A stretch of DNA of 64,000 nt from Arthrobacter sp. SLBN-100 (GTDB taxonomy: Bacteria > Actinomycetota > Actinomycetes > Actinomycetales > Micrococcaceae), in the NCBI RefSeq assembly GCF_006715305.1, contig NZ_VFMY01000001.1, positions 4,154,001 to 4,218,000 on the forward strand, read 5' to 3'. This document shows positions 3,317 through 21,328 of the stretch, in pieces. The translations under genes and the position numbers were made by a program. How positions within the stretch are numbered: the stretch's first letter is position 1; the number at the start of each line of letters is the position of its first letter. The notes beneath the pieces are model-generated. The model was not told the origin of the DNA. It did not search any database and saw nothing but the letters and a program-made list of their open reading frames with translations.

Positions 3317-3650
3317 CTATCGTTGCTCCCGGCTGACCTCAGCCTGAACCCCCGCGTCCCGGAACCTCTGCACCTGCTCGGGGTCGGCGCCGTAGTCCGT
3401 CACGAGGGCCCACGGCAGGGCCAGACGCGCCCAGGCGTGGAAGGGCCGCAGCCCGAGTTTCGACGAATCCGCCAGCACATACACGTCGCGGCCCCGGCGG
3501 GCGATGAGTTCCTTGAGGCGCGTCTGGGCGTGGTCCTCGGTGGTGACGGCGTCGAGCGGGATGCTCTCCCCGGGCACGATCACTGACGCCCGCCGCCCAA
3601 CGGGCGACGTGCTTCTGCTCAAACGCCTCGCCGGTGCGCGCCCAGCTCAA
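3317..3650 (-). pseudogene. broken DeoR/GlpR-family regulator, remnant
   Basis: The fragment is a decayed relative of the intact DeoR gene at 10804-11577. One frame gives RTGEAFEQKHVARWAAG, matching the middle of the intact protein, then the reading shifts near position 3595 to another frame that gives PGESIPLDAV and HAQTRLKELIARRGRDVYV, then ADSSKLGLRPFHAWARLALP. The helix-turn-helix half is missing, and about 90 residues between LDA and VTxED are deleted. Another six residues before HAQTR are lost. With the DNA-binding part absent and a frameshift present, it cannot make a working repressor. It is either a partial duplication of the downstream gene or the remains of another DeoR gene. Confidence 0.8.
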
Positions 3651-8450: not shown

Positions 8451-9935
8451 ATGGATCCCCAAAGCACGGGTCCCCGCCGCCTTGCGGCGCGCTTCCGTCC
8501 CGGCAGGACACGCTGGGGCGTCCGCAAGCGTGCCACGGCCAGCGCGGTGGTGGTGGTGGCAGGTGCGCTCCTCGTCGCCGGGTCCGTCCTGCTGATCCTG
8601 TTGCAGACATATCTCAGCGCATCCACTGAGACCGCAGCCCGGCGCAAGGCTGACGACGTGATTGCCCAGATGGCAGATCATGACGTGGAAGAAGCCGCCG
8701 AATACATCATGAACACCGCTCATGCCGGCCAATACGTGCAGATCCTGACGCCTGCCGGAACTGTTTTCGCGTCCTCTGATTCCGCCGGAGCTGCACAGCC
8801 CTTGACTGCCTTGCGGCCATCAGCCGGAGAGATCCTGACACAGAAAGCGTCCGGACTGCCCGAGGTGGGCGACATCGATGATTTCCTTGTAGTCGCCAAG
8901 GGGGTCCCGGTACGCGGGGAGACCTACACGGTGGCGGTTGCGTCCACAGTTCAGGTCCAGGCGGATGCCGTCTCAACCGTCGCATGGCTCATGCTGGGTT
9001 TGGCGCCGGTGCTGCTGCTGGCTGTTGGCCTGCTGGTGTGGGAGCTGGTGGGGCGTTCCCTGCGCCAGGTGCAGCGGATCCGGCGGCAGGTATCGGGTAT
9101 CAACGTTCATAGGCTGGGCGGACGGGTGGACGTGCCGCCGACTGCTGACGAGATCACTGCCCTGGCCTTGACGATGAACAGCATGCTGGACAGGCTCCAG
9201 GCTTCCGAACAGGAACAGCGGCGGTTCGTCTCCGATGCCAGCCATGAGCTCCGGAGCCCGCTGGCAACCCTCAGTGCTGCGGTTGAGGTGGCTTCCGCGG
9301 ACCCCACCGGCGCAACATGGAACGAGTTGAAGGATGTCCTCGCCGGTGAAACAGCCCGGATGCGTTATCTCGTCGAAAACCTGCTGACCCTGGCCAAATC
9401 CGACGACGGCGGGCTACGCATCGACATGACCGACGTGGACTTGGACCATGTGGTGCAGGATGAGATCCGCCGCCTGCGCGCCACGAGCCCGCACCGCATT
9501 GAAGCGGACCTCCGGCCCGTGCGGATCACGGGTGACCCGATGCGGCTGGGGCAGGTGCTGCGCAACGTGCTGGACAACGCGGACAAGCATGCCCGCTCCC
9601 GCATCAGGATCACCCTGGACACGCGCCCCGGCGAGGCCGTCCTCGCCGTCGACAACGACGGCGACCCCGTGCCTGAAGGCGACCGTCTCCGGATTTTCGG
9701 CCGCTTTGTCCGGCTGGATGAAAGCCGGACGCGGGGAAGCGGGGGCAGCGGCCTGGGCCTGGCCATCGCGGAAAGCATTGTGGCAGCGCATCACGGCACC
9801 ATCAGTGCTGCCGAAAGCCCGGCCGGCGAGTGCCGGTTCGAGCTCGTCTTCCCGTGCGCCGGTCCGGTCGAGCTTCCGGACCATAATCGCGGTGACCGGC
9901 TGCTGTCTCCGTTCCCAAAGCTAAGTCCGCCGTGA
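8451..9935 (+). CDS. sensor histidine kinase
   Basis: A 494-residue membrane sensor kinase. TM1 lies at about 30-55, an extracytoplasmic sensor part at 56-175, and TM2 at 176-200. A HAMP linker follows at about 201-255. The phospho-acceptor His is in SDASHELRSPL at residue 265. The ATPase domain shows the N box VLRNVLDNADKHA, then DNDGDPVPEGDRLRIFGRF and the G2 box GGSGLGLAI. It should phosphorylate the response regulator at 9921. Unusually, that regulator gene faces this one and the two coding ends overlap by 15 bases. The kinase gene is divergent from the exporter operon. Confidence 0.85.
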   Translation: MDPQSTGPRRLAARFRPGRTRWGVRKRATASAVVVVAGALLVAGSVLLILLQTYLSASTETAARRKADDVIAQMADHDVEEAAEYIMNTAHAGQYVQILTPAGTVFASSDSAGAAQPLTALRPSAGEILTQKASGLPEVGDIDDFLVVAKGVPVRGETYTVAVASTVQVQADAVSTVAWLMLGLAPVLLLAVGLLVWELVGRSLRQVQRIRRQVSGINVHRLGGRVDVPPTADEITALALTMNSMLDRLQASEQEQRRFVSDASHELRSPLATLSAAVEVASADPTGATWNELKDVLAGETARMRYLVENLLTLAKSDDGGLRIDMTDVDLDHVVQDEIRRLRATSPHRIEADLRPVRITGDPMRLGQVLRNVLDNADKHARSRIRITLDTRPGEAVLAVDNDGDPVPEGDRLRIFGRFVRLDESRTRGSGGSGLGLAIAESIVAAHHGTISAAESPAGECRFELVFPCAGPVELPDHNRGDRLLSPFPKLSPP

Positions 9936-10610
9936 AGCTGCGTCCGCGGAGAGGACGTAGCCCATTCCCCGAACAGTAGTCAGGGTATGGAGATTGAACG
10001 GAATGTCGATCTTCCTCCGGAGGTAGCCGATGTACACCTCCACCACGTTGTCGCCGCCTTCGAAAGCGGGATCCCACACGTTGTCCAGGATCTCCGCCTT
10101 GGACACCACCTGGTCATGGCGCCGCATCAGGTATTGCAGCAGTCCGTATTCACGTGCGGTCAGAACGATCGCGCGGTCACCCCGGCAGACCGTACGCCGG
10201 GCAGGGTCCAGGACCAGCGTCCCCAGCGACAGCACAACAGGCCGTTCGGGGGCGCCGCGGCGAACCAGGGCGCGGATGCGGGCAATCAGGATCAGGAAAC
10301 TGAACGGCTTGGTAAGGTAGTCATCGGCCCCGAGGTTGAAGGCATCGGCCTGGTCGTATTCCCCGTCCTTCGCCGTCAGCATCAGCACCGGCGTCCAGAT
10401 TCTCCGTTCCCGGATTTCCTTCAAGACTTCATAGCCGTTCTTCAGCGGCAGCATGACGTCCAGGAGGATGACGTCATAGATGTTCTCGGTCGCCGCCCAC
10501 AACCCGCTGACGCCGTCATGGGTGACCTCCACGACGAATCCCTCATTGGACAGGCCTCGGCGCACGGTTTCACCCAGCATCCGTTCATCCTCGACCATCA
10601 GCACCCGCAT
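9921..10610 (-). CDS. OmpR/PhoB-family response regulator
   Basis: A two-domain regulator of 229 residues. The receiver domain has the acidic pair VEDE near residue 9, the phospho-acceptor Asp in VILLDVMLP at about residue 51, and the Lys in LTKPF. The C-terminal winged helix shows LTAREYGLLQYLMRR and YIGYLRRKID, then TVRGMGYVL. The start at 10610 gives MRVLMVEDE and has AAGG upstream; an ATG 18 bases earlier adds six residues with a poorer site. The gene faces its probable kinase partner tail to tail. A regulator and kinase that converge are rarer than a single operon and imply separate promoters. Confidence 0.85.
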   Translation of the reverse strand: MRVLMVEDERMLGETVRRGLSNEGFVVEVTHDGVSGLWAATENIYDVILLDVMLPLKNGYEVLKEIRERRIWTPVLMLTAKDGEYDQADAFNLGADDYLTKPFSFLILIARIRALVRRGAPERPVVLSLGTLVLDPARRTVCRGDRAIVLTAREYGLLQYLMRRHDQVVSKAEILDNVWDPAFEGGDNVVEVYIGYLRRKIDIPFNLHTLTTVRGMGYVLSADAASRRT

Positions 10611-10803
10611 GGGCCCCGCCTTCTTCATTGGAGACGAAATACACGCTATCTACAGGGTAGGCCCGCACCCCTGCAAAAACCTTGGGGTCCCGGGTTGTGG
10701 ATTCTGCTGGCTGCGGATGGCGCTGTTGGATTGGGCTGCGAAGTGGGAGGCGGGATCTGGCGGGGGACCCTCTCCGCCAGGGCTTCTGTTGGGGTTACTT
10801 GCC

Positions 10804-11577
10804 TCAACCACCGACCTTCGCCACCTCAACCGCAACCCCCGCCTCGCGAAACTTAGCCACCTGCGCCGGGTCGGCGCCGTCGTCCGTCACCAGCGTCCAA
10901 GGCAAAGCCAACCGGGCCCACGCATGGAACGGCCGCAGTCCGAGCTTGGATGAATCGGCCAGCACGTACACCTCCCGGCCGCGGCGGGCCATGAGCTCCT
11001 TGAGCCGGGTCTGGGCGTGGTCGGCCTCGCAGATGCCGTCCTCGGCCGTGACGGCGTCGGCGCCGAGGAAGACCCGGTCGAAGCTCATCCGCTCCAGCGC
11101 CGCCTCGGCCAGCGGTCCCACAAAACTCTGCGAAACGTTGCGCAGCCGGCCGCCCAGGCAATCCACCTCGATGCCCTCGGACTCGGCCAGCTCCTGCAGG
11201 GTGTTGATGCCCGGCGTGGTCACGGACAGCTTCTCGAACCCCCGCAGTTCGTGGGCCAGGGCACCTGCGGTGGAGCCGGCGTCGAGCAGGATGTTCTCCC
11301 CGGGCCGGATAACGGATGCGGCCCACCGGGCGATGGCGTGCTTCTGCTCGAACGCTTCCCCGGTGCGCTGCCGCAGCGACGCCTCCGGGTGGGCGCCCAG
11401 GGCCATGGCACCGCCGTAAGTGCGGGCCAGCCGGCCCTGCCCGTTCAGGAGCGCCAGGTCACGGCGGATGGTGGACGCAGTCACCTCGAACCGGGCGGAC
11501 AGTTCCTCCACGGACGCCAGGCCGGTGGTCACGGCAAGGTGGTAGATCTCCTCGCGCCGCGCGTTTGCGCTGAGCAT
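10804..11577 (-). CDS. DeoR/GlpR-family transcriptional regulator
   Basis: A 257-residue repressor. The N-terminus carries the DeoR helix-turn-helix: REEIYHLAVTTGLASVEELS and TASTIRRDLALLN. The C-terminal DeoR sensor domain shows ILLDAGSTAGALA, FLGADAV, then HAQTRLKELM, and ADSSKLG. The sensor domain of this family binds phosphorylated sugars. Start 11577 is chosen because AAGGAGG lies six bases upstream; the frame is open 66 bases further. The gene lies beside the kinase-dehydrogenase gene on the same strand and most likely controls the acid-sugar cluster; the sensed ligand may be a phosphorylated sugar acid. Confidence 0.85.
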   Translation of the reverse strand: MLSANARREEIYHLAVTTGLASVEELSARFEVTASTIRRDLALLNGQGRLARTYGGAMALGAHPEASLRQRTGEAFEQKHAIARWAASVIRPGENILLDAGSTAGALAHELRGFEKLSVTTPGINTLQELAESEGIEVDCLGGRLRNVSQSFVGPLAEAALERMSFDRVFLGADAVTAEDGICEADHAQTRLKELMARRGREVYVLADSSKLGLRPFHAWARLALPWTLVTDDGADPAQVAKFREAGVAVEVAKVGG

Positions 11578-11638
11578 TCCCGGCCTCCTTCCCGTGGCAG
11601 TGGTACCCATGCTAGTTCCGGCCTCGGGTTTCGCTAGG

Positions 11639-11710
11639 CTCAACCACCGGGGGACCGCTCAACCACCGGGAGATCAGGCTCAACCACCGGGGGACCGCTC
11701 AACCACCGAC
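11639..11710. repeat. tandem cluster of the GGTTGAGC repeat
   Basis: Four copies of GCTCAACCACCG are spaced about 19-21 bases apart. They are an inverted-orientation form of the dispersed element seen elsewhere in the window (CCGGTGGTTGAGCC followed by TGTCGAAACCCG). The cluster fills the gap between the kinase-dehydrogenase gene and the DeoR gene. The stop codon of the kinase-dehydrogenase gene (TGA within GGTGGTTGAGC) lies inside the first copy, so the last residues VVGG are repeat-encoded. Confidence 0.75.
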
Positions 11711-14098
11711 GACGGACGGCCGGGTGGCCATCTCCGCCGCCTGGTGCAGCGCCTCCACCATGGACCGCGGATCCGCGATCGCCTTGCCGGCGATGTCGAA
11801 GGCGGTGCCGTGGTCCACGGACGTGCGGATCACCGGCAGGCCCACCGTGATGTTCACGCCGGCCTCGATGCCCAGCACCTTCACCGGCCCGTGCCCCTGG
11901 TCGTGGTACATGGCCACCACCAGGTCGTAATCACCCCGGCCGGCCAGGAAGAACAGCGTGTCCGCGGGCAGCGGGCCCACCGCGTTGATCCCTGCAGCCT
12001 GCGCGGCCTTCACGCCCGGCTCGATCTTTTCCGCTTCCTCGCCCTGGCCGAACAAGCCGTTCTCGCCGGCGTGCGGGTTGATGGCGCAGACGCCGATCTT
12101 CGGGTTCGGGATGCCCGCGCGGACCAGCGCCTCGTGGCCCCGGCGGATGGTGCGCTCCACCAGATCCGGGTTGATCTTGCGGATCGCATCCATCAGCCCG
12201 ATGTGAGTGGTCACGTGGATCACCCGGATCTTGGGCGTGGAGAGCATCATGGACACTTCCTCGGTGCCGGTCAGGTGGGCCAGCAGCTCGGTGTGCCCGG
12301 GGAAGATGTGCCCGGCGGCATGCAGCGCCTCTTTGTTCAGCGGCGCGGTGCAGATCGCCTGCACCTTCCCGGCCATCGCCAGTTCGCTGGCCACCCGGAT
12401 GTACTCGTACGCGGCGTGGCCGGCCACGGGGGAGAGCTGCCCCCACGGCAGGTCCTCGGGCAGCAGCGCCAGGTCGATCACGTTCACCCGGCCCGGGGTG
12501 AACACGGCATCCTCAACGTTCTCAATGCTCTGGATGTCCGCCTCGATACCCAGGACGTCCGCGGCCTGGCGCAGCCGCAGTGCGTCGCCGACCACCACCG
12601 GCCGGCATTCGGCATTGCTCTGCGGATCCAGCACGGCGGCCACCACTACCTCCGGCCCCACGCCGGCGCCGTCGCCCATGGTGACGGCCACGTTGGGGAG
12701 TTGCGCGCGATCAGTGTTGTTCATGGAGGGTCCTTTTCGGGGCAGGAACGGCTGGGGCGCCGTCGGGAGGGTGTACGGCGGGGAGGATTCCGCTGCAAGG
12801 GAGTATGGGTAGCCGGAGAGTGCGGCCACGATGGTGCGGAGGCTGTCCGGGCCGCCGAAGCTTCCGGGGCGGGTCACCACCGGCATTCCGGCCGGTGTGA
12901 GGGCCAGGACGGCCCCGTGCTCAATCTCGCCCAGCACGTCCAGCCGCTGCACGCCCAGGGCATCCAGCACCGAACGGGCCGTTTCCCCGCCCGTAAGCAT
13001 CAGCGGGCGGTCCTCCGCCAGGGGAGCCACTGCCCTGGCCAGCGCGGCGGCAATACGGGACGACGACGCCGAATCCACCGTGGAAGCATCCACCGTCACC
13101 GCCGCAGGACCTGCTTGAAGTGCCTCTTCGAGCGGCGCGAGGTCCGGGGTTCCGGCCAGCAGGTCGGCCGGCAGGAGCGTGATCACGGGAACGGCGTCGC
13201 CGGCCAGGTTGTGCAGCTGATCCCGCGCCGCCCCGGATGCGGAGCCCACCACAAGGAGGGGAAAGTTTCCCGGCTTCCGGGCGCCCAGGGAACGCACGAC
13301 GGCGGGACTGGCCTTGGGTGCCTGGCCGGCGGTCCGTGCCAGCGCGGCTCCGAGGGCGGAAGCGCCTGCGAACCGGAGGCCCGGGATGCTGCGGCCTGAG
13401 CACGCGATGGCGTCCAGATCCTCTGGGGTTTCGGCGTCGCAGATGACCACCGGGACGGGACGCGTGGCGAAGGCCGCCGTGAGTGCCGCAGTGAGCGTCT
13501 CCATCCCGGAGCGGACGGTGGCCAGGTCAACCACCACCGTGGCCAGCGGATGCAGCGCCTCGGCGATCGTCTCCGGGGGAGGGGACGATTCGGCGTTCCA
13601 CAGAGCGGTTTGATGCAGCGGAATACCCTGGTGATGAATGGTGCCGTTGACCGTGCTCCGGCCCAGCGGCGGCAGGGCCGGGGCCAGGATGACGGGACCT
13701 CCCTCCGCCAGGACCGAGAGCTGTGATGCCACCGGTCCGCGGAGCAGGGAATCGATCTTGAGGAACACAACGGCCGGGCCATCGGCCGGGGGCTGCGCGT
13801 CCAGGACCTGGCGCAGCCGTGCGGCCGCCGCTTCGGCGGGGAACCTCCGGTTGTCCGTGTCCAGGACCAGGAGGGCCGCGTCCGGCGGAAGGTGCCGCAG
13901 GTCTGACGCCAGCTCCTCCGGAAGGTGCGGCAGGAGCCGGACCTGCGGGCCGCCATCGTCCGCTGTGAACTGTCCGGGACGCCCGCCTTGCGCACTCTGT
14001 GCACAAGGGTTAATCAAGATTTGCGCAGGTGCCAGGAGGCCGGCAGCCGTCTCAGCCGCGCCGGAAAGATCATCAGCAATAGCGATAATCCGCTGCAT
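11699..14098 (-). CDS. fused four-carbon acid sugar kinase (DUF1537) and PdxA-type 4-phospho-tetronate dehydrogenase
   Basis: One open frame of 799 residues. Residues 1-450 are a DUF1537 sugar-acid kinase: RIIAIADDLSGAAETA at the start, DTDNRRF, FLKIDSLLRGPVA, and LMLTGGETARSVLDALG near the end. Residues 459-799 are a complete PdxA-type dehydrogenase: VAVTMGDGAGVGPE, then three metal-binding histidines in FPGHTELLA, VTTHIGL and MYHDQGHGPVKVLG. In known pathways separate DtnK/DenK and PdxA2 proteins phosphorylate D-threonate or D-erythronate at O4 and then oxidise and decarboxylate it to dihydroxyacetone phosphate. The start has AAAGGAGG five bases upstream. An internal ATG at 12724, preceded by AAAGGA, could make a free PdxA part. 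The frame has no stop between the two parts, which is unusual. It is divergent from the importer operon. Confidence 0.85.
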   Translation of the reverse strand: MQRIIAIADDLSGAAETAAGLLAPAQILINPCAQSAQGGRPGQFTADDGGPQVRLLPHLPEELASDLRHLPPDAALLVLDTDNRRFPAEAAAARLRQVLDAQPPADGPAVVFLKIDSLLRGPVASQLSVLAEGGPVILAPALPPLGRSTVNGTIHHQGIPLHQTALWNAESSPPPETIAEALHPLATVVVDLATVRSGMETLTAALTAAFATRPVPVVICDAETPEDLDAIACSGRSIPGLRFAGASALGAALARTAGQAPKASPAVVRSLGARKPGNFPLLVVGSASGAARDQLHNLAGDAVPVITLLPADLLAGTPDLAPLEEALQAGPAAVTVDASTVDSASSSRIAAALARAVAPLAEDRPLMLTGGETARSVLDALGVQRLDVLGEIEHGAVLALTPAGMPVVTRPGSFGGPDSLRTIVAALSGYPYSLAAESSPPYTLPTAPQPFLPRKGPSMNNTDRAQLPNVAVTMGDGAGVGPEVVVAAVLDPQSNAECRPVVVGDALRLRQAADVLGIEADIQSIENVEDAVFTPGRVNVIDLALLPEDLPWGQLSPVAGHAAYEYIRVASELAMAGKVQAICTAPLNKEALHAAGHIFPGHTELLAHLTGTEEVSMMLSTPKIRVIHVTTHIGLMDAIRKINPDLVERTIRRGHEALVRAGIPNPKIGVCAINPHAGENGLFGQGEEAEKIEPGVKAAQAAGINAVGPLPADTLFFLAGRGDYDLVVAMYHDQGHGPVKVLGIEAGVNITVGLPVIRTSVDHGTAFDIAGKAIADPRSMVEALHQAAEMATRPSVVGG
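13987..14009. promoter_or_regulatory. inverted repeat, probable second DeoR-family site
   Basis: Arms CCTTGCGCA and TGCACAAGG are separated by CTCTG and match at eight of nine positions. The left arm shares TTGCGCA with the perfect palindrome at 14178-14194, about 190 bases away. It lies within the first 40 codons of the kinase part, where a repressor could form a loop with the promoter site. Binding by the adjacent DeoR protein is inferred. Confidence 0.5.
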
Positions 14099-14177
14099 TG
14101 CTGCCTCCTTTGGCGAGTGGCTGGATCCGGTGCTTGACCCATGAGAACTTGGGGTTGCACAAAACACGCTAAACCAC

Positions 14178-14194
14178 TTGCGCACTATGCGCAA
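14178..14194. promoter_or_regulatory. perfect inverted repeat in the divergent acid-sugar promoter
   Basis: TTGCGCA-CTA-TGCGCAA is a perfect palindrome with a three-base spacer in the 193 bases between the kinase-dehydrogenase start (14098) and the importer start (14292). Such a site is well placed to control both directions. The DeoR-family regulator at 10804 is the nearest candidate. Confidence 0.6.
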
Positions 14195-14291
14195 TGGTGG
14201 CATTGTGATCGGAGTAACAGCAGCGGGGCGCGTATCAGCAGGATGCAAACGCCTCGGCCGGCAGGTGCCGGCCCTTACTTGGAGGTCAAAG

Positions 14292-15923
14292 ATGACTCGT
14301 TCCAACAGCGTTGACGGCGGCAGCAATTTCCTCGGCGAGGTAGCGCAGCGTTCGCTGTCCCGGCGTTCAATCCTGCGGTGGGGCGCCCTGGCCGGAGCCG
14401 GCGCAGTGCTGGCCCCCGCCGTCACCGCATGCGTGGGCCCCAGCGCTCCGAACGGCGGAGGCGGAGCCACCGGCACCAGCACGCTCACCTTGGGACTCAA
14501 CCGCTCGCTGGTCAGCCTGGACAACAAGCTCAACCAGTTCGACGCCGCCGTCACCGTCCAGCGCGCGGTCCGTCAGGCACTGACGGAAATCGGTGACGAC
14601 CTCAAGCCCCGCAACGTCCTGGCCGAAAGCTTCGAACTCACCAGCCCCACCCAGTGGACCGTGAAGCTCCGCAACGACATCAAGTACTCGGACGGCACCC
14701 AGGTGGCCGTGGAGGACGTGGCCAAGGCGCTGGAAATGTACAGCCAGGTCAACGGCTCCTTCCTGGCCCCGCAGTTCCCGGAATGGCCCAAGGTCACCAA
14801 GAAGGACGAACTGACCTTCACCCTGGACACCAAGGCCCCGCTGCCCGTGCTCAACACCCTGATGTCCAACATCCTCATCACCCCCGCCGCCGCCAACAAG
14901 CCGGAGGAACTGCAGGAGGGCGTGGGCACCGGCCCCTACAAGGTGGCCTCCGCGGACCGCGGCACCGGCACCTACAAGCTGGTGGTCAACGAGAACTACT
15001 GGGGAGACAAGCCCAAAGTGGCCGAGGTGAATGTCCGCTTCATGTCCGAGGAATCCAGCCGCGTGGTGGCCCTCCGGTCCGGCGAGGTGGACGTCATCGA
15101 CTCCATCACCCCGGACTCCGTGGCCCAGCTGAAGTCCGTGGACGGCATCACGGTCGAGTCCGTCACCGGCACCCGCTACAACCAGCTCTTCTACAACTTC
15201 CGCAAGCCCGCGGACAGCCCCATGTCCGATCCCAAGGTCCGCGAGGCGCTCTCCTACGGGTTCGACAGCAAGTCCGTGGTGGACGGCATCCTCGGCGGCA
15301 CCGTCACCTCCGCCAAGGGCGTTGTCCCGCAGACCCTGGCCGGCGCCGTGGAAACCGGCGAGTACAAGTACGATCCCGCCAAGGCCAAGTCCATGCTCGC
15401 GGACCTGGGCGTCTCCAACCTCAAGGTCAAAGTCATCTGGGAAACCGGCGAATTCGCCGGCGACGTGTCCATCATGGAAGCCCTGGTGGAAATGATGAAG
15501 CAGATCGGCGTGACCGCCGAGCTGCAGCAGTTCCAGCCCGGCGGGGACATCTCCACCTGGCGCCAGGGCAAGGCAGGGGACTGGGACATCCTGGGCAACG
15601 GCTACGGCAACCAGACAGGCCTGGCCCTGACCAACCTGCAGGGCATGTACGCCGGCACCGCCGAAAAGGAAGCCACCCGCGACACGTACCACGGCTTCGT
15701 TTTCCCCGAGATCAGCAGCCAGATCATCACCGCCACCTCCGAGACGGACCAGGCCAAGAGCACCCAGCTGCTCACCCAGGTCCAGAAGGACATCTGGGCC
15801 AAATGGCCCTGCATGTGGGCGTTCATCCCCAACGCCGTCCTGGCCCGCCGCACCCGGGTGGAAGGCATCAAGCTGCGGCCCATCAACTCCTACCAGCTCT
15901 CAAACGTCTCGGTGAACGGCTAG
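14292..15923 (+). CDS. ABC importer substrate-binding lipoprotein, family 5 (Dpp/Opp type)
   Basis: A 543-residue extracellular binding protein. The N-terminus has a twin-arginine-like SLSRRSILRWG followed by a hydrophobic run and a lipobox AVTAC, so it is probably a Tat-exported lipoprotein. The family 5 fold is clear: FELTSPTQWTVKLRNDIKYS (seen as WTVKLRNDIKYSDGT), GTGPYKV, NENYWGDKP, then the C-terminal lobe with DPKVREALSYGFD. Family 5 proteins bind peptides, nickel or oligosaccharides; the cluster suggests a sugar acid or a conjugate of one. Start 14292 has GGAGGT six bases upstream. It is first in the operon with the permeases and ATPases. Confidence 0.85.
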   Translation: MTRSNSVDGGSNFLGEVAQRSLSRRSILRWGALAGAGAVLAPAVTACVGPSAPNGGGGATGTSTLTLGLNRSLVSLDNKLNQFDAAVTVQRAVRQALTEIGDDLKPRNVLAESFELTSPTQWTVKLRNDIKYSDGTQVAVEDVAKALEMYSQVNGSFLAPQFPEWPKVTKKDELTFTLDTKAPLPVLNTLMSNILITPAAANKPEELQEGVGTGPYKVASADRGTGTYKLVVNENYWGDKPKVAEVNVRFMSEESSRVVALRSGEVDVIDSITPDSVAQLKSVDGITVESVTGTRYNQLFYNFRKPADSPMSDPKVREALSYGFDSKSVVDGILGGTVTSAKGVVPQTLAGAVETGEYKYDPAKAKSMLADLGVSNLKVKVIWETGEFAGDVSIMEALVEMMKQIGVTAELQQFQPGGDISTWRQGKAGDWDILGNGYGNQTGLALTNLQGMYAGTAEKEATRDTYHGFVFPEISSQIITATSETDQAKSTQLLTQVQKDIWAKWPCMWAFIPNAVLARRTRVEGIKLRPINSYQLSNVSVNG

Positions 15924-15926
15924 CCC

Positions 15927-16862
15927 ATGCTTCCATATGTCGCCAAGCGCTTGGGCCAGAGCCTGCTCACGATCTTCCTGACCGTGTCCACAGTCTTTGT
16001 CCTGATCCGCATGGCACCCGGCGACCCGGCCTACGCCCTGGCCGGGCCGCTGGCCACCACCGGGGACCTCGAAAAAATCCGCACCTCCATGGGGCTCAGC
16101 GAACCCCTGATCACCCAGTACGGCATCTTCCTCAAGGAGCTCGGCGCCGGAAACATCGGCAAGTCCTACTCGTTCCAGGCCCCGGCCCTGGAAGTGGTGC
16201 TGTCCCGGCTCCCGAACACCATTTTCCTGGCGGTGCTCGCGATCCTGCTGGCCATCGTGGTAGCCATCCCGCTGGGGGTCTGGATGGCCAAGCGCGCGGA
16301 CACCAAGCGCGAACTTGGCGTCAACGTCCTCACCATCGCCGGGCAGTCCATGCCGGACTTCTGGATCGGCATCATGCTGCTGACCCTGTTCGCCGTGGTG
16401 TTCCCCATCTTCCCGTCCTCCGGTTTCACCAGCTGGTCCGGGGTGGTCCTGCCGGTCACCACGGTGGCCATCCTGCAGATCGCCCTGGTGTCCCGGATGG
16501 TCCGCCGGGAGGTGGGCACCAACATGGCAGCCCCGTACCTCACGGTGGCCAGGGCCCGCGGCACCGGCGAGCAGAAGCTCACCTGGGCCTACGCCATGCG
16601 CAACTCCTCCATCCCCATCCTCACGGCCCTGGGGACCAGGTTCGCCGGCATGCTCAACGGCGTGGTGGTGGTGGAAGTGGTGTTCAACTGGCCAGGCCTC
16701 GGCTCGCTGGTGGTCCGGGCGCTGGAAACCCGCGACTACCCCCTGATCCAGGCCACGGTACTGGTGACCTCGGTCCTCGCCGTCGGCGTCCAGCTGCTGA
16801 TCGATCTGTGCTACCCGCTGCTGGACCCCCGCGTCCGGCTTGGAAAGGTGTCCGTGGCATGA
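15927..16862 (+). CDS. ABC importer permease, DppB/OppB type
   Basis: A 311-residue membrane permease with about six helices. The start MLPYVAKRLGQSLLTIF and the APGDPAY motif after the first helix are diagnostic of DppB-type permeases. The EAA-like coupling loop is seen around TVARARGTGEQKLTWAYAMRN (ARARGTGEQKL). It begins three bases after the binding-protein stop and its stop overlaps the next gene by four bases. It forms the pore together with the DppC-type permease. Confidence 0.87.
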   Translation: MLPYVAKRLGQSLLTIFLTVSTVFVLIRMAPGDPAYALAGPLATTGDLEKIRTSMGLSEPLITQYGIFLKELGAGNIGKSYSFQAPALEVVLSRLPNTIFLAVLAILLAIVVAIPLGVWMAKRADTKRELGVNVLTIAGQSMPDFWIGIMLLTLFAVVFPIFPSSGFTSWSGVVLPVTTVAILQIALVSRMVRREVGTNMAAPYLTVARARGTGEQKLTWAYAMRNSSIPILTALGTRFAGMLNGVVVVEVVFNWPGLGSLVVRALETRDYPLIQATVLVTSVLAVGVQLLIDLCYPLLDPRVRLGKVSVA

Positions 16863-17779
16863 GTACCGTCAACGAAATCCCGCTCGCCGCCCAGGCCATG
16901 AAACGGCCGACGGCGGTCACCAGGCAGCTGCTCCGGCGTTCCTCCGCGGCGCGGCGGGAGCGCTCGGCCAAGGTGAAGATGGTGCTGGGAGGCTTCCTCA
17001 CCGCCGTCGTGGTCCTGCCCATCATCCTGGCGCAGGTCCTGCCGCTGCCCGACGTCGATGCCCAGGCCATCACCTCCCGCTTCCTGCCGCCGCTGAGCGG
17101 TGGCCACCTGTTCGGCACCGACCAGCTGGGCCGGGACATCCTCTCCCGCGTGCTGCACGGCGGCCAGGTGTCGCTGACCATCGGGGTGCTCGCCGTCGTC
17201 ATTTCCGGCATCGTGGGCGTGGTGCTCGGCGCGCTGGCCGGGTTCTTCGGCGGCTGGGTGGACGCGGTGGTCTCCCGCCTGATCGAGGCCCAGCTCTCGC
17301 TGCCCCTGCTGATGATGCTCCTGCTGGTGGTGGCGCTGTTCGGCCCCTCCGTCCCCGTGATCACGTTCGTCATCGCCATCGCCCAATGGCCGGAACCGGC
17401 CCGCCTCACCCGCTCGCTGGTGCTGGTGGAACGCGAAAAGCCCTACGTGCAGGCCGCGAAAGTCCTGGGCCTGCCGCAGATCACCACGCTGGTGAAGCAC
17501 ATCATCCCCAACGTCATCAACCAGGTCATTGTGGTGGTCCTGCTGCTCCTGGCCACGGCCGTGCTGATGGAAAGCGCGCTGAGCTTCCTCGGCGCCGGCC
17601 CGCAGCGGCCCTTCGCCACGTGGGGCCGGATCATCTCCGACGGGCAGGACTTCATCACCACCTCCTGGTGGATCGTCACCCTCCCCGGTGCCGTGATCGC
17701 CACCCTGGTGGTGGGGGTCAACCTGCTGGCCGACGGCCTGCGGGACCGCGTGCGCCGCCGGAAGGGAGCAACCGCATGA
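16859..17779 (+). CDS. ABC importer permease, DppC/OppC type
   Basis: A 306-residue permease of the DppC class. A cytoplasmic N-terminus rich in Arg precedes TM1 at about 38-60. The class marker HLFGTDQLGRDILSRVLHGG is present (GTDQLGRDILSRV). The coupling loop AAKVLGLPQITTLVKHIIPN and the ending ESALSFLGAGPQRPFATWG are also typical. ATGA overlaps join it to the genes on both sides, so translation is coupled. Confidence 0.87.
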   Translation: MSTVNEIPLAAQAMKRPTAVTRQLLRRSSAARRERSAKVKMVLGGFLTAVVVLPIILAQVLPLPDVDAQAITSRFLPPLSGGHLFGTDQLGRDILSRVLHGGQVSLTIGVLAVVISGIVGVVLGALAGFFGGWVDAVVSRLIEAQLSLPLLMMLLLVVALFGPSVPVITFVIAIAQWPEPARLTRSLVLVEREKPYVQAAKVLGLPQITTLVKHIIPNVINQVIVVVLLLLATAVLMESALSFLGAGPQRPFATWGRIISDGQDFITTSWWIVTLPGAVIATLVVGVNLLADGLRDRVRRRKGATA

Positions 17780-18624
17780 GCGTGCTGGAGGTCAGGGACC
17801 TTTCCGTTGAACTGATGACCACCGCCGGCGTGATCCGCGCCGTGGACGGCATCTCCTTCTCCATCGACGCCGGGCAGACCGTCACCATCATCGGTGAGTC
17901 AGGTTCCGGCAAGAGTACGACGGCGATGGGCCTCCTGAGGCTCCTGCCGGACGACCTCGCCGTCATCTCCGGCCACGCCGTGCTGGACGGGGTGGACGTG
18001 GTGACCGAGCCGAAGAAGTTCGCGAAGCTGCGCGGCCGGTCCGTGGCGCTTATCCCGCAGGACGCCATGACGGCGCTGTCCCCGGTGCACACCATCGGCA
18101 AGCAGTTGGGGCAGGCGATCCTGCGGAAAGGCCCCGCGTCCAAGGCCGACCTGAACCGCCGCTCCGTGGAGCTGCTGGGGCAGGTGCGCATCCCGCAACC
18201 GGAGGCTCAGCTGAAGAAGTACCCGCACCAGCTCTCCGGCGGCATGCTCCAGCGCGTCCTCATTGCCATGGCGCTCGCCGTCGACCCCGTGCTGCTGGTG
18301 GCCGACGAACCCACCAGTGCCCTGGACGTCACCGTGCAGGCCGGCATCCTGGACCTGTTGATGGAACTGCAGGAACGGACGCACGTGGCCATCCTGATGA
18401 TCACGCACGATTTGGGCGTGGCCCGGCTGGTCTCTGACCGGATCCACGTGATGAAGGATGGCAGGTTCGTGGAAAGCGGCGAGGTGGAGCAGATCGTGGA
18501 GCACCCGCAGACCGAATACACCAAAAAACTCCTGGCCGCGGTGCCCAAACTGGGCCACTGGGACGGCGAACCGCACCCCGGGGTTGAGTCAAGCCCCGCA
18601 AGCCTGGATGGAGCACGATCATGA
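17776..18624 (+). CDS. ABC importer ATPase, DppD/OppD type
   Basis: A 282-residue ATPase with Walker A GESGSGKST, signature LSGGMLQRV, Walker B LLVADEPTSALDV and H-loop ITHDLG. It pairs with the next ATPase to drive import. It is shorter than the usual 325 residues of DppD proteins and lacks the Cys-rich C-terminal oligopeptide extension, which carries the iron-sulfur cluster in several peptide importers. This fits a non-peptide substrate but does not prove it. Confidence 0.85.
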   Translation: MSVLEVRDLSVELMTTAGVIRAVDGISFSIDAGQTVTIIGESGSGKSTTAMGLLRLLPDDLAVISGHAVLDGVDVVTEPKKFAKLRGRSVALIPQDAMTALSPVHTIGKQLGQAILRKGPASKADLNRRSVELLGQVRIPQPEAQLKKYPHQLSGGMLQRVLIAMALAVDPVLLVADEPTSALDVTVQAGILDLLMELQERTHVAILMITHDLGVARLVSDRIHVMKDGRFVESGEVEQIVEHPQTEYTKKLLAAVPKLGHWDGEPHPGVESSPASLDGARS

Positions 18625-19514
18625 GTTCCCAGTTGAATACGCCTGCGGCTGCCGGGACGGACCTGGTGCTGTCGGTTCGGAACCTCACGGTGGACTACGC
18701 CGTGCACCGCACCAGCTTCCGGGCCGTCGAGGATGTCAGCTTCGACGTTCCACGCGGCAGCACCGTGGCCATCGTGGGGGAGTCCGGCTGCGGCAAGTCC
18801 ACCATCGCCAAGGCGATCGTCCGCCTGCTCACGCCCACTTCGGGGGAGATCCTGGTCAACGGCCAGGACATCGCGCGGATGCCGGCACGGCAGCTGCGGC
18901 CGCTCCGGGCCAAGGTGCAGATGGTCTTCCAGGATCCCTACGGGTCGCTGGACCCGCACCTGACGGCCGAGGACATCGTGGCCGAGCCGCTGACCCTGCG
19001 CGGAATCCGGTCCGGCAAGGAACGCCGGGCGGAAGCGGCCAAGCTCATCGACCAGGTGGGATTGCCCGCGTCCGCCTTGGGCCGGCGGCCGGCCGAGTTT
19101 TCCGGCGGGCAGCGGCAGCGCATCGGCATCGCCCGGGCCCTGGCCTCAAAGCCGGAACTGCTGGTGTGTGATGAGGCCACCAGCGCGCTGGACGTTTCGG
19201 TCCAGGCGCAGGTGCTGGAACTCCTCGCGGACATCCAGCGGGACAGCGGGCTCACGTACCTGATGATCAGCCACAACCTGGGCGTGGTGCGGGAAAGCAG
19301 CAGCCATGTGCTGGTGATGTCCAAGGGGAAGATCGTGGAGCAGGGGCCCACCGAACAGGTCCTCACCCGCCCGCAGGATCCCTACACGCGGGCGCTGCGG
19401 GCAGCGGCTTTGGATCCGCTGACCATGACGGGACGCAAGCCCCGTGAAGTGGTATCAAGGCTGAACAAGGTAGCGCTGCAGGGCGAACCCGTACTGATGG
19501 AGGAAGCAAGCTGA
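18621..19514 (+). CDS. ABC importer ATPase, DppF/OppF type
   Basis: A 297-residue ATPase with Walker A GESGCGKST, signature FSGGQRQRIGIARAL and Walker B LLVCDEATSALDV, where Ala replaces the common Pro. The H-loop is ISHNLG. It completes the five-gene importer. Its stop overlaps the start of the aldo/keto reductase gene by one base, so the reductase belongs to the same transcript. Confidence 0.87.
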   Translation: MSSQLNTPAAAGTDLVLSVRNLTVDYAVHRTSFRAVEDVSFDVPRGSTVAIVGESGCGKSTIAKAIVRLLTPTSGEILVNGQDIARMPARQLRPLRAKVQMVFQDPYGSLDPHLTAEDIVAEPLTLRGIRSGKERRAEAAKLIDQVGLPASALGRRPAEFSGGQRQRIGIARALASKPELLVCDEATSALDVSVQAQVLELLADIQRDSGLTYLMISHNLGVVRESSSHVLVMSKGKIVEQGPTEQVLTRPQDPYTRALRAAALDPLTMTGRKPREVVSRLNKVALQGEPVLMEEAS

Positions 19515-20491
19515 TGCAGGGAACCACGGTGGCAGGCCTGGAGCTTCCCATCTCTCAACTGGCGCTGGGTACCATGACCTTCGGCGACACCGCATCGGAG
19601 GAGGTGGCGGCGGGCATGCTGGCCGCCGCGCTCGAGGCCGGGATTACGGTGGTGGATACCGCCAACGGCTACGCGGGCGGAGCCAGCGAGGAAATCCTGG
19701 CGAAGCTCCTCCCGGCGCACCGGGACGCCGTCGTGCTGGCTTCCAAAGCCGGGATGCCGCACCCGGACGCGGGGGACAACTCGCCGCTGTCAGCCGAGGG
19801 GATCCGCCGCTCCGTCGATGGCAGCCTCCGCCGGCTCGCCACGGACCGGCTGGACCTTTTCTACCTCCACCAGCCGGACCGGAAGGCGCCGCTGGAAGAA
19901 ACGCTCGACGCCGTCGGGCAGCTGATCCGCGACGGCAAGGTGGGCGCGTGGGGCGTGTCCAACTTCGCCGCCTGGCAGATCAGCGAGCTGAACACCGCCG
20001 CCGACGCCGCCGGGGTGCCGCGGCCGGTGGTGGCCCAGCAGCTGTACAACCTGCTGGCCACGCGCATCGAGGACGAGTACCTGGAGTTCGCCCAACACAG
20101 CGGGCTGCTGACCATGGTCTACAACCCGCTGGGCGGCGGACTCCTCACCGGCAAGCACTCGTTCACGGAGTCGCCCGCCGAAGGCCGGTTCGGCACCTCG
20201 CGGCTGGCCGAGATGTACAAGCAGCGGTACTGGGACCCCCGGCTTTTTGACGCCGTGCGCCAGCTCGCCGAGATCGCGGACGGCGCAGGCCTGCCGCTGC
20301 CGGAGCTGTCCTTCCGCTGGCTGCTGAGCAAGCCCGGCGTGGGCTCCGTCCTGCTGGGCGGCTCCAAGCTGGAACAGCTGCAGGCGAACATCGCCGCGGC
20401 CGCGAAGGGCCCGCTGCCGGAGGACGTGGTGGCGGCGTGCGATGCCGTGGCCGCAGAAATCCGCGGGCCCATGCCCAAGTACAACCGCTGA
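19514..20491 (+). CDS. aldo/keto reductase
   Basis: A 325-residue NADPH-type oxidoreductase with a TIM-barrel fold. The catalytic set is visible: Asp and Tyr in VVDTANGY, Lys in VLASKAG and His in FYLHQPD. The C-terminus has SVLLGGSKLEQL, which forms the cofactor-binding end. In this cluster it could oxidise or reduce a sugar or sugar acid before phosphorylation. Its start overlaps the transporter ATPase stop, which ties its expression to uptake. The exact substrate is unknown. Confidence 0.85.
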   Translation: MQGTTVAGLELPISQLALGTMTFGDTASEEVAAGMLAAALEAGITVVDTANGYAGGASEEILAKLLPAHRDAVVLASKAGMPHPDAGDNSPLSAEGIRRSVDGSLRRLATDRLDLFYLHQPDRKAPLEETLDAVGQLIRDGKVGAWGVSNFAAWQISELNTAADAAGVPRPVVAQQLYNLLATRIEDEYLEFAQHSGLLTMVYNPLGGGLLTGKHSFTESPAEGRFGTSRLAEMYKQRYWDPRLFDAVRQLAEIADGAGLPLPELSFRWLLSKPGVGSVLLGGSKLEQLQANIAAAAKGPLPEDVVAACDAVAAEIRGPMPKYNR

Positions 20492-20563
20492 CCTTTGCCT
20501 GCCTTTACTGCCCGGCTGAACTTTCGTTACCAACTCTCGTTACCGACTGAAGAGGAAACTGCC

Positions 20564-21328
20564 ATGACTGCCGCATCGTTCGCAGCCAAAGCCCGAGCCA
20601 ATGAGCCCGTCATCGGATACTGGGTGGTGCTGGACTCGCCGGTGTCCACCGAGCGGGTGGCGCGGCTGGGCTATGACTACGTGGCGCTGGATGCCCAGCA
20701 CGGGCTGATGGGGTACTCCGGGTGGCTGCACGGCCTGATGGCAATTGACGCCGCCGGGGCTGCGGGGATTGTCCGGGTTCCGTCCAACAACGCGGCGTTC
20801 ATCGGGCAGGCGCTCGACGCCGGGGCCGCCGGGGTGATCGTGCCGCTGGTCAACAACGCCGAGGAAGCTGCCGCCGCCGTCCGGGCCGTGCGCTATCCGC
20901 CGCACGGAATGCGGTCCTACGGCCCCATGCGGTCGGCGCTACGGATCGGACCCGTACCCGCCGAGGCCGACGCGACCGTGCTGTGCCTGGCCATGATTGA
21001 AACACCCGAAGGTCTGGAAAACGTCAAGGAGATCTGCGCGGTACCGGGGATCGACGGCGTGTATATCGGCCCGTCCGACCTGTGCCTGGCGGTGGGCGGC
21101 AAGTTCCCGAACGATCCCGACGTGGCCGAGGAGTTCAACGCAGCCCTGGTGACCATCCGCGAGGCAGCACAGGACGCCGGCGTCATCGCCGCCATCCATA
21201 CGGCGAGCGGCGAGATTGCCGCCCAGCGGATCTCGGAGGGCTTCACGTTCGTCACCGTGGCCTCAGACCTCACGCACCTGGAGATCGCGGCCGCGAACCA
21301 TCTGGCCACTGCCCGCTCCGGTGGTTGA
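20564..21328 (+). CDS. HpcH/HpaI-family aldolase
   Basis: A 254-residue class II pyruvate-type aldolase. Conserved segments are DYVALDAQHGLMGY (His base), IVRVPSNNAAFIGQALDAGA, then a metal-ligand Glu in MIETPEGLENV and Asp in YIGPSDLCLA. Family members split 2-keto-3-deoxy sugar acids into pyruvate and an aldehyde. The start at 20564 has GAGGA upstream; the frame is open for 69 more bases. Its stop codon lies within a dispersed repeat, and its last residues (SGG) are encoded by it. It closes the acid-sugar operon. Confidence 0.85.
   Translation: MTAASFAAKARANEPVIGYWVVLDSPVSTERVARLGYDYVALDAQHGLMGYSGWLHGLMAIDAAGAAGIVRVPSNNAAFIGQALDAGAAGVIVPLVNNAEEAAAAVRAVRYPPHGMRSYGPMRSALRIGPVPAEADATVLCLAMIETPEGLENVKEICAVPGIDGVYIGPSDLCLAVGGKFPNDPDVAEEFNAALVTIREAAQDAGVIAAIHTASGEIAAQRISEGFTFVTVASDLTHLEIAAANHLATARSGG

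What the first reader, a model, noticed from the sequence alone, without database searches (positions are those of the whole stretch)
10804..21328. Acid-sugar catabolic cluster with a Dpp-type importer, an aldo/keto reductase and an HpcH aldolase
The set DeoR regulator, kinase-dehydrogenase, five-gene family 5 importer, reductase and pyruvate-type aldolase is coherent and tightly overlapping. Known tetronate pathways use other transporters and do not need an HpcH/HpaI aldolase. The extra aldolase and the shortened DppD ATPase suggest that the substrate is larger than a four-carbon acid, for example a sugar acid or conjugate cut to pyruvate plus an aldehyde. This may be an undescribed pathway.
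Basis: partly seen in the sequence, partly recalled or inferred. Interest (0 to 1): 0.75.

Follow-up and report, generated by a model that had tools for sequence, protein, structure and literature searches.

The report
Predicted pathway for plant sugar Dha
A set of soil-bacterium genes looks like an uptake and breakdown route for Dha, a rare acidic sugar that plants carry only in one type of pectin, and no bacterial route for using it was found in the papers searched.

Summary
The cluster is real: DeoR repressor, fused DUF1537 kinase-PdxA dehydrogenase, SBP5/Dpp ABC importer, aldo/keto reductase (AKR) and HpaI-type aldolase at 10804-21328. The gene order recurs across Actinobacteria.

I propose the substrate: 3-deoxy-D-lyxo-2-heptulosarate (Dha) of pectin rhamnogalacturonan II (RG-II). 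Route: aldolase gives pyruvate + D-threuronate; AKR gives D-threonate; kinase-PdxA gives DHAP + CO2, a one-carbon-longer GarL-GarR-GarK.

Support: (1) 30 of 32 complete operons also carry a sialidase-fold gene. (2) In 82 loci a reductase occurs only with an aldolase (46/48 against 0/34), and both are swapped for unrelated enzymes of the same class. (3) In one related family the module sits among RG-II-type pectin enzymes, and in three genomes beside a protein whose best PDB hit is the C-terminus of 5mqr.

Against: the window's genome lacks the sialidase-like gene; that protein's own match to 5mqr is very weak; no biochemistry exists; stereochemistry was worked by hand.

The parts
10804..11577 (-). 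DeoR-family repressor (a TTG start at 11643 is also possible)
   Evidence: Pfam DeoRC 3.4e-41; 89-95% identical to regulators of Dpp/HpaI-type operons of Pseudarthrobacter-like loci (L033, L034, L037, L049, L050, L061) and 93-94% to those of KdgT-type operons L044, L045, L047
11699..12724 (-). PdxA2-like domain (4-phospho-D-threonate dehydrogenase, decarboxylating; proposed) of the fusion protein
   Evidence: Pfam PdxA 1.6e-107; PDB 4jqp, 6e85 (named D-threonate 4-phosphate dehydrogenase), 2hi1; internal Met at 12724
12725..14098 (-). DUF1537 kinase domain (D-threonate kinase; proposed), N-terminal half of the fusion
   Evidence: Pfam SBD_N 5.5e-29, NBD_C 3.2e-22; start 14098
14178..14194 (.). 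Putative DeoR operator TTGCGC-N5-GCGCAA in the divergent promoter (pattern chosen after looking at the sequence)
   Evidence: Only exact match in the 64-kb window (0.02 expected); a like palindrome in 8 of 34 equivalent intergenic regions, this one included (letter-shuffled control at most 1), and upstream of the KdgT operons in L044 and L047 but not L045
14292..15923 (+). Family 5 solute-binding lipoprotein of the importer
   Evidence: Pfam SBP_bac_5 8.4e-70; RR motif and lipobox-like PAVTAC read by eye; PDB relatives include YliB, AgaA, agrocinopine- and dipeptide-binding proteins
15927..16862 (+). DppB-type permease
   Evidence: Pfam BPD_transp_1
16859..17779 (+). DppC-type permease
   Evidence: Open frame; 65-75% identical counterparts in the other full operons
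17776..18624 (+). DppD-type ATPase
   Evidence: Pfam ABC_tran in 16840-18624; start 17776
18621..19514 (+). DppF-type ATPase
   Evidence: Pfam ABC_tran 3.4e-37
19514..20491 (+). Aldo/keto reductase (D-threuronate to D-threonate; proposed)
   Evidence: Pfam Aldo_ket_red 2.1e-66; best PDB hit aflatoxin B1 aldehyde reductase member 2; Asp/Tyr/Lys/His motifs present by eye
20564..21328 (+). HpaI/GarL-type metal-dependent pyruvate aldolase (Dha to pyruvate + D-threuronate; proposed); alternative TTG start 20495
   Evidence: Pfam HpcH_HpaI 9.2e-36; best NCBIfam hits HpaI and GarL, below their cut-offs; PDB 6r62, 2v5j, 1dxe

Best explanation
The cluster encodes uptake and catabolism of 3-deoxy-D-lyxo-2-heptulosarate (Dha), a seven-carbon diacid of rhamnogalacturonan II, taken in as the free acid or as a small Dha-containing glycoside. 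Proposed steps: the SBP5/Dpp ABC importer brings it in; the HpaI-type aldolase cuts it to pyruvate and D-threuronate (2,3-dihydroxy-succinate semialdehyde); the aldo/keto reductase reduces the aldehyde to D-threonate; the DUF1537 domain phosphorylates C4; the PdxA domain oxidises and decarboxylates 4-phospho-D-threonate to dihydroxyacetone phosphate + CO2. DeoR would repress the divergent promoters through TTGCGC-N5-GCGCAA, probably sensing a late intermediate shared with plain D-threonate operons. In most relatives a sialidase-fold protein (F5, no signal peptide seen by eye in L033) would free Dha from its glycoside; the window strain has lost that gene. Shown: gene families, order, co-occurrence, displacement, genomic context in relatives, fold of F5. 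Inferred: every reaction and the substrate.
For: Gene families. HpaI's own substrate, recalled, is the 5,6-dideoxy analogue of Dha (4-hydroxy-2-oxoheptanedioate, giving pyruvate + succinate semialdehyde); the closest solved relative of the reductase is of AKR7A type, recalled as succinate semialdehyde reductase. Hand-worked stereochemistry: C5 and C6 of D-lyxo Dha become D-threo, and D-threonate is the known DUF1537/PdxA substrate (Zhang 2016, not held, recalled; DtnK named in PMC10971088, passages; PDB 6e85 name). Co-occurrence: reductase in 46 of 48 aldolase loci against 0 of 34; sialidase-like F5 in 41 of 48 against 0 of 34; KdgT permease 1 of 48 against 25 of 34. Displacement: HpaI and DapA/NanA-type aldolase never together (40 and 8 loci); AKR swapped for Fe-ADH and the ABC importer for a sodium symporter in L067, L099 and L123. 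F5 has the sialidase fold: AlphaFold2 mean pLDDT 86.3, and 46 of the 50 listed PDB hits are sialidases by title. RG-II context: five genomes of one family hold F5, DapA-type aldolase, SBP5, AKR, kinase, PdxA and DeoR among pectin enzymes. In G469 the order is F5-AKR-HpaI-693 aa protein, whose best PDB hit is the C-terminus of 5mqr (E 9.2e-11); 5mqr is, as I recall, B. thetaiotaomicron BT1020, which acts on the Araf-Dha side chain. Trees place the window's HpaI and AKR among F5-bearing clusters, with modest support.
Against: The window's genome has no F5 (the same query rings in 9 of 59 relatives), no BNR_2 protein (the family rings in 5 of 14 control genomes) and no 693-aa-type glycosidase by the one query tried; no RG-II glycosidase was seen beside its cluster. 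F5's own link to 5mqr is very weak: E 0.085 for one member, not among the 60 profile hits shown, not found with two other members, and not among the 50 fold hits listed. The kinase and PdxA domains score below the NCBIfam cut-offs for D-threonate enzymes. Of the RG-II-family loci only G469 has HpaI, the others a DapA-type aldolase; G462 has DapA, F5, importer and apiosidase but no PdxA or AKR in the 40 kb fetched. The loci were chosen by similarity to the kinase-PdxA protein (best 80 of a capped list) and many are close relatives, so the Fisher p-values overstate independence. Catalytic residues of F5 were not mapped. Sialidase folds also serve Kdo, Kdn and Neu5Ac (recalled).
Confidence: 0.66

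Rival explanations
1. Plain tetronate (D-threonate or D-erythronate) uptake and catabolism; the AKR and aldolase are passengers.
For: DUF1537 + PdxA is the textbook D-threonate pair (recalled; DtnK in passages of PMC10971088); a 93% identical DeoR and a like operator stand at KdgT-type operons without aldolase.
Against: The reductase (AKR or Fe-ADH) occurs in 46 of 48 aldolase loci and in 0 of 34 others; non-homologous replacement of both keeps the pair; KdgT is nearly absent from aldolase loci.
Confidence: 0.1
2. Another 3-deoxy-2-ulosonic acid, above all Kdo of RG-II: the aldolase gives pyruvate + D-arabinose, and the AKR acts on the pentose.
For: Kdo is the other 2-ulosonic acid of RG-II (PMC12168206, PMC12282258, passages); sialidase folds could release it.
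Against: It leaves the conserved kinase-PdxA (four-carbon acid) step without a substrate. None of the 11 gene families found in 29 or more loci is an obvious pentose gene, though the role of the short-chain dehydrogenase F9 is open.
Confidence: 0.09
3. A different C7 acid, for example 3-deoxy-heptulosonate (DAH) cut to pyruvate + erythrose, with the AKR acting as an aldose dehydrogenase to erythronate.
For: Some aldo/keto reductases oxidise aldoses (recalled; L-galactose dehydrogenases appear at the end of the list).
Against: The closest solved relatives are aldehyde reductases; Fe-ADH stands in for the AKR in some loci; the RG-II setting in relatives gives no reason for DAH (inference).
Confidence: 0.08
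4. A peptide or opine importer beside unrelated metabolic genes.
For: SBP5/Dpp is the peptide family; solved relatives include dipeptide-, AgaA- and agrocinopine-binding proteins.
Against: Importer, reductase and aldolase are one tightly packed unit found together in 32 of 82 loci.
Confidence: 0.04

Closest known systems
D-glucarate/galactarate branch GarL-GarR-GarK (recalled)
   Same: HpaI-family aldolase to pyruvate + semialdehyde acid, a reductase, a kinase
   Different: Three-carbon tartronate semialdehyde and glycerate there; four-carbon threuronate and threonate proposed here, AKR instead of GarR, and a decarboxylating PdxA step added
D-threonate pathway DtnK + PdxA2 (Zhang 2016, not held, recalled; DtnK in passages of PMC10971088)
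   Same: DUF1537 kinase and PdxA-type dehydrogenase
   Different: Here extended upstream by importer, reductase and aldolase; kinase and PdxA fused; KdgT permease absent
B. thetaiotaomicron RG-II enzyme BT1020, PDB 5mqr (identity and function recalled)
   Same: Its C-terminal part is the best PDB hit of the 693-aa neighbour of F5-AKR-HpaI in G469, with kin in G470 and partly G463; its N-terminal part is a sialidase-like domain (recalled), as is F5
   Different: Separate genes in the Actinobacteria; neither is in the window's genome; the F5-5mqr match is very weak (E 0.085) and absent and the lists shown
4-hydroxy-2-oxoheptanedioate aldolase HpaI
   Same: Family, aligned catalytic motifs, C7 2-keto diacid type of substrate
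   Different: Below the HpaI and GarL equivalog cut-offs (154.6 against 368.8 and 145.3 against 406.75 bits)

Membership tests
D-threonate catabolic pair (DtnK/PdxA2) | DUF1537 N- and C-terminal domains plus PdxA domain | tested here: met
   SBD_N, NBD_C and PdxA above Pfam cut-offs
D-threonate catabolic pair (DtnK/PdxA2) | Score above the NCBIfam equivalog cut-offs for D-threonate kinase and D-threonate 4-phosphate dehydrogenase | tested here: not met
   84.4 against 450 and 335.9 against 583 bits; the general PdxA model TIGR00557 is met (360.2 against 290.35)
D-threonate catabolic pair (DtnK/PdxA2) | Converts D-threonate to DHAP | not testable with these tools
   Needs enzymes
HpaI/GarL aldolases | HpcH_HpaI family with the acid/base, Arg and metal-site motifs | tested here: met
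   Pfam 123.6 bits against 25; LDAQH, VRV, AMIET, IGPSD align with their counterparts in 6r62; the catalytic roles are recalled
HpaI/GarL aldolases | Equivalog cut-off of HpaI or GarL | tested here: not met
RG-II utilisation locus | RG-II-type glycosidases beside the sugar-acid genes | tested here: not met
   None seen next to the window's cluster; present in relatives G048, G457, G459, G463 and G470
RG-II utilisation locus | Sialidase-fold Dha hydrolase candidate in the genome | tested here: not met
   Absent from the window's genome; present in 30 of 32 full operons
Dha hydrolases (sialidase-like; GH143 recalled) | Sialidase fold of F5 | tested here: met
   (TM-score 0.60-0.69 by query length, 12-16% identity)
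Dha hydrolases (sialidase-like; GH143 recalled) | Sequence or fold closest to the known Dha hydrolase 5mqr | tested here: not met
   E 0.085; not, nor in the lists shown
Dha hydrolases (sialidase-like; GH143 recalled) | Arginine triad, Tyr/Glu pair and acid/base residue | not tested
   Invariant Arg, Asp, Glu and Tyr exist in the family but were not mapped on an active site
SBP5/Dpp ABC importers | SBP_bac_5 + two permeases + two ATPases | tested here: met

The most novel reading that the evidence does not exclude
This is the first complete bacterial route for Dha, built as a C7 version of the glucarate pathway that drains into the D-threonate pathway. It has been assembled at least twice with unrelated aldolases and reductases, and in Actinobacteria it is usually paired with a cytoplasmic sialidase-fold Dha hydrolase and an SBP5 importer that takes up the glycoside whole.
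Probability: 0.48. Interest if true: 0.8.

Novelty: new variant of a known kind. Interest (0 to 1): 0.62.

Why it matters
In plants Dha is reported only from RG-II (PMC12168206, passages). No way for a bacterium to use it was found in the papers searched. A named substrate with a short enzymatic route makes an orphan acid-sugar cluster of soil Actinobacteria directly testable. It would give enzymes to make or measure Dha, for which standards are lacking (same paper), and would link the DUF1537/PdxA family to pectin turnover in soil.

Tried and rejected
Rejected: the shortened DppD as evidence of substrate size. Rejected: that a related solo HpaI in G016 (87% identical) marks another pathway; it stands alone there with no cluster. 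Led nowhere: a phylum-wide search for F5 (2 of 396 genomes; in the rows shown only four candidates per genome were scored); structure library pdb_via (not on the machine). A first co-occurrence count with a 10-kb limit (F5 in 34 of 41 aldolase loci and in 3 of 36 others; reductase in 39 of 41 and 3 of 36) missed HpaI lying just beyond 10 kb in L051, L080 and L087 (positions). It was replaced: 12.5 kb, somewhat changed identity limits, 82 of 93 loci with at least 6 kb on both sides, plus the window kept by exception (18 kb of it were used). Left out before that count: L036, L046, L048, L129-L131, the stretches L132-L142 of family f13, and duplicates L035 and L042. L043 counts there as F5-negative although its F5 lies just outside the stretch (in L130).
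Full report
What is there. The stated interval holds a complete, tightly packed cluster. On the minus strand lie a DeoR repressor (10804-11577) and a 799-residue protein (11699-14098) that joins a DUF1537 kinase to a PdxA-type dehydrogenase. On the plus strand lie a family 5 binding protein (14292-15923), two permeases, two ATPases, an aldo/keto reductase (19514-20491) and an HpcH/HpaI aldolase (20564-21328). The shortened DppD is true but ordinary for the family.

It is a conserved module. I took 80 loci from named genomes (the best of a capped list) and others from unnamed relatives. Of 93 loci with a kin PdxA, 82 could be scored (at least 6 kb on both sides, and the window). Thirty-two of the 82 have binding protein, permease, AKR and HpaI together, from Arthrobacter and Pseudarthrobacter to Nonomuraea, Streptomyces, Micromonospora, Kribbella, Rhodococcus and Mycolicibacterium. 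In 30 of these 32 a further gene, F5 (about 410 aa; Pfam BNR_2 for the two members tested), is near by; the two without it are the window and Frondihabitans L070. A short-chain dehydrogenase (F9) is found at 29 of 41 F5 loci.

Two kinds of kinase-PdxA locus. Loci with an aldolase (48 of 82) have a reductase in 46, F5 in 41 and a KdgT permease in 1. Loci without an aldolase (34) have a reductase in 0, F5 in 0 and KdgT in 25 (one KdgT member checked by Pfam). Nine of the 34 have neither. The KdgT kind reads as free D-threonate use; the aldolase kind as the same pathway with a longer upper part. Same-genus genomes of both kinds have a DeoR 93-95% identical to the window's. The palindrome TTGCGC-N5-GCGCAA lies in the window's divergent promoter (14178-14194) and 77-125 bases before KdgT in L047 and L044. 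It is in 8 of 34 divergent promoters, with single half-sites in all but two of the 34 (L058, L062). The pattern was chosen after looking, L045 has none, and L033 has one inside its kinase gene, so this is a lead.

Enzyme classes are kept while the enzymes change. HpaI (40 loci) and a DapA/NanA-type aldolase (8 loci) never occur together. In L067, L099 and L123 (Burkholderiales) the AKR is replaced by an iron alcohol dehydrogenase and the ABC importer by a sodium symporter, with F5 kept. Within one family, G469 has HpaI where the larger loci have the DapA type. So the required reactions look like a pyruvate aldolase, an aldehyde reductase, a kinase and an oxidative decarboxylase.

Which substrate. 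DUF1537 + PdxA is known for D-threonate (Zhang 2016, not held, recalled; DtnK in PMC10971088, passages). Working back: D-threonate from D-threuronate by a reductase, D-threuronate plus pyruvate from a 2-keto-3-deoxy-heptarate by the aldolase. With the right stereochemistry (worked by hand) this is 3-deoxy-D-lyxo-2-heptulosarate, Dha. In plants Dha is reported only from RG-II, in side chain D (PMC12168206, passages), which ends in beta-1,5-Araf (PMC12282258, passage). HpaI's own substrate is the dideoxy analogue of Dha (recalled), and the AKR is closest to AKR7A-type enzymes among solved structures.

Signs of RG-II from relatives. I wrote down the Dha hypothesis (note) before I knew what F5 was. 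F5 turned out to be a sialidase-fold propeller: mean pLDDT 86.3, pTM 0.87, with 46 of the 50 listed Foldseek hits titled sialidase or neuraminidase. Sialidase-type enzymes act on 3-deoxy-2-ulosonic acids (recalled). In the family of G048, 8 of 24 genomes have F5. Five of the eight (G048, G457, G459, G463, G470) carry a long locus with F5, DapA-type aldolase, SBP5, AKR, PdxA, DeoR and a kinase (37-68% identical to each other and to that of G469; in G459, G463 and G470 the match to the window's kinase is too weak to call). These loci also hold pectin enzymes, not the same in each: G459 has GH28, pectinesterase, two GH127, GH78, GH2 and a RuBisCO-like + DUF1537 pair; G463 only GH28 and pectinesterase in what I identified; apiosidase was found in G470 and G462. 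G466 is cut by a short contig. G462 has aldolase, importer, F5 and apiosidase but no PdxA or AKR in the 40 kb read, which does not fit. G469 has a compact F5-AKR-HpaI-693 aa set; the 693-aa protein, with kin in G470 and partly in G463, has as best PDB hit the C-terminus of 5mqr (E 9.2e-11). I recall 5mqr as BT1020, the B. thetaiotaomicron enzyme that removes Araf and Dha from RG-II; PMC10850190 (passages) states that GH142 enzymes of that species are beta-L-arabinofuranosidases for RG-II. Against this, F5 itself resembles 5mqr only very weakly (E 0.085), and 5mqr is missing and from the hits shown.

The window's own version. It is a mosaic: DeoR and PdxA are 95-96% identical to L033, but the kinase is 39%, binding protein 60%, permeases and ATPases 67-73%, AKR 65% and HpaI 67%. 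Trees place its HpaI and AKR among F5-bearing clusters and its binding protein between two groups of them; support for the exact places is modest, and in the AKR tree its neighbour L108 is a long branch. Its genome has no F5 or other BNR_2 protein and no 693-aa-type glycosidase (no positive control). I infer loss of the glycosidase step: this strain would use free Dha, or a glycoside that another enzyme or species opens.

Novelty. Nine literature searches found no Dha catabolic pathway (I saw listings, and passages of a few papers); the library holds only open-licence papers, so this is not proof. All enzyme families are known; the combination and the substrate are what is new. I file it as a new variant of a known kind (acid-sugar catabolic operon), confidence 0.66 for the Dha route, higher for the cluster family than for the window's own copy.

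Noticed in passing
window 3329-3638 (-): Degenerate remnant of a second DeoR gene (77% identity over 75 residues, in pieces), near the deaminase-like gene (by eye) 2328-2807; kin of that gene lie about 1 kb from the intact DeoR in L033 and L045 and farther off in L037 and L044. The present cluster may lie beside the decayed older site.
   Followed up: partly
window 11699-14098: Mosaic breakpoint inside one fusion gene: PdxA half 96% and kinase half 39% identical to L033.
   Followed up: partly
window 8451-10628: Histidine kinase (+) and response regulator (-) genes face each other tail to tail and overlap by 15 bases, an unusual arrangement for a two-component pair.
   Followed up: no
L129:11183-11944: Solo HpaI in G016, 87% identical to the window's, without kinase, importer or AKR, about 280 bases from a cold-shock-like gene; several genes after it match window 53.5-57.4 kb.
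   Followed up: partly
L052:601-1326 and family F9: Short-chain dehydrogenase found at 29 of 41 F5 loci; role unknown, perhaps a second redox step.
   Followed up: no
L130:1-2132: DUF1537 kinase + RuBisCO-like pair in the same locus as the Dha-type genes, like the recalled 3-oxo-isoapionate kinase/decarboxylase of apiose catabolism.
   Followed up: partly
L092:2541-4781: GH106-type rhamnosidase in the same stretch as HpaI, kinase-PdxA and an F5 fragment in Streptomyces viridochromogenes.
   Followed up: no
L084, L104, L106, L126: Aldolase loci with a transporter-like protein (f30; no Pfam hit for the member tested) and a 2-hydroxyacid dehydrogenase (f18), and without the Dpp importer.
   Followed up: no
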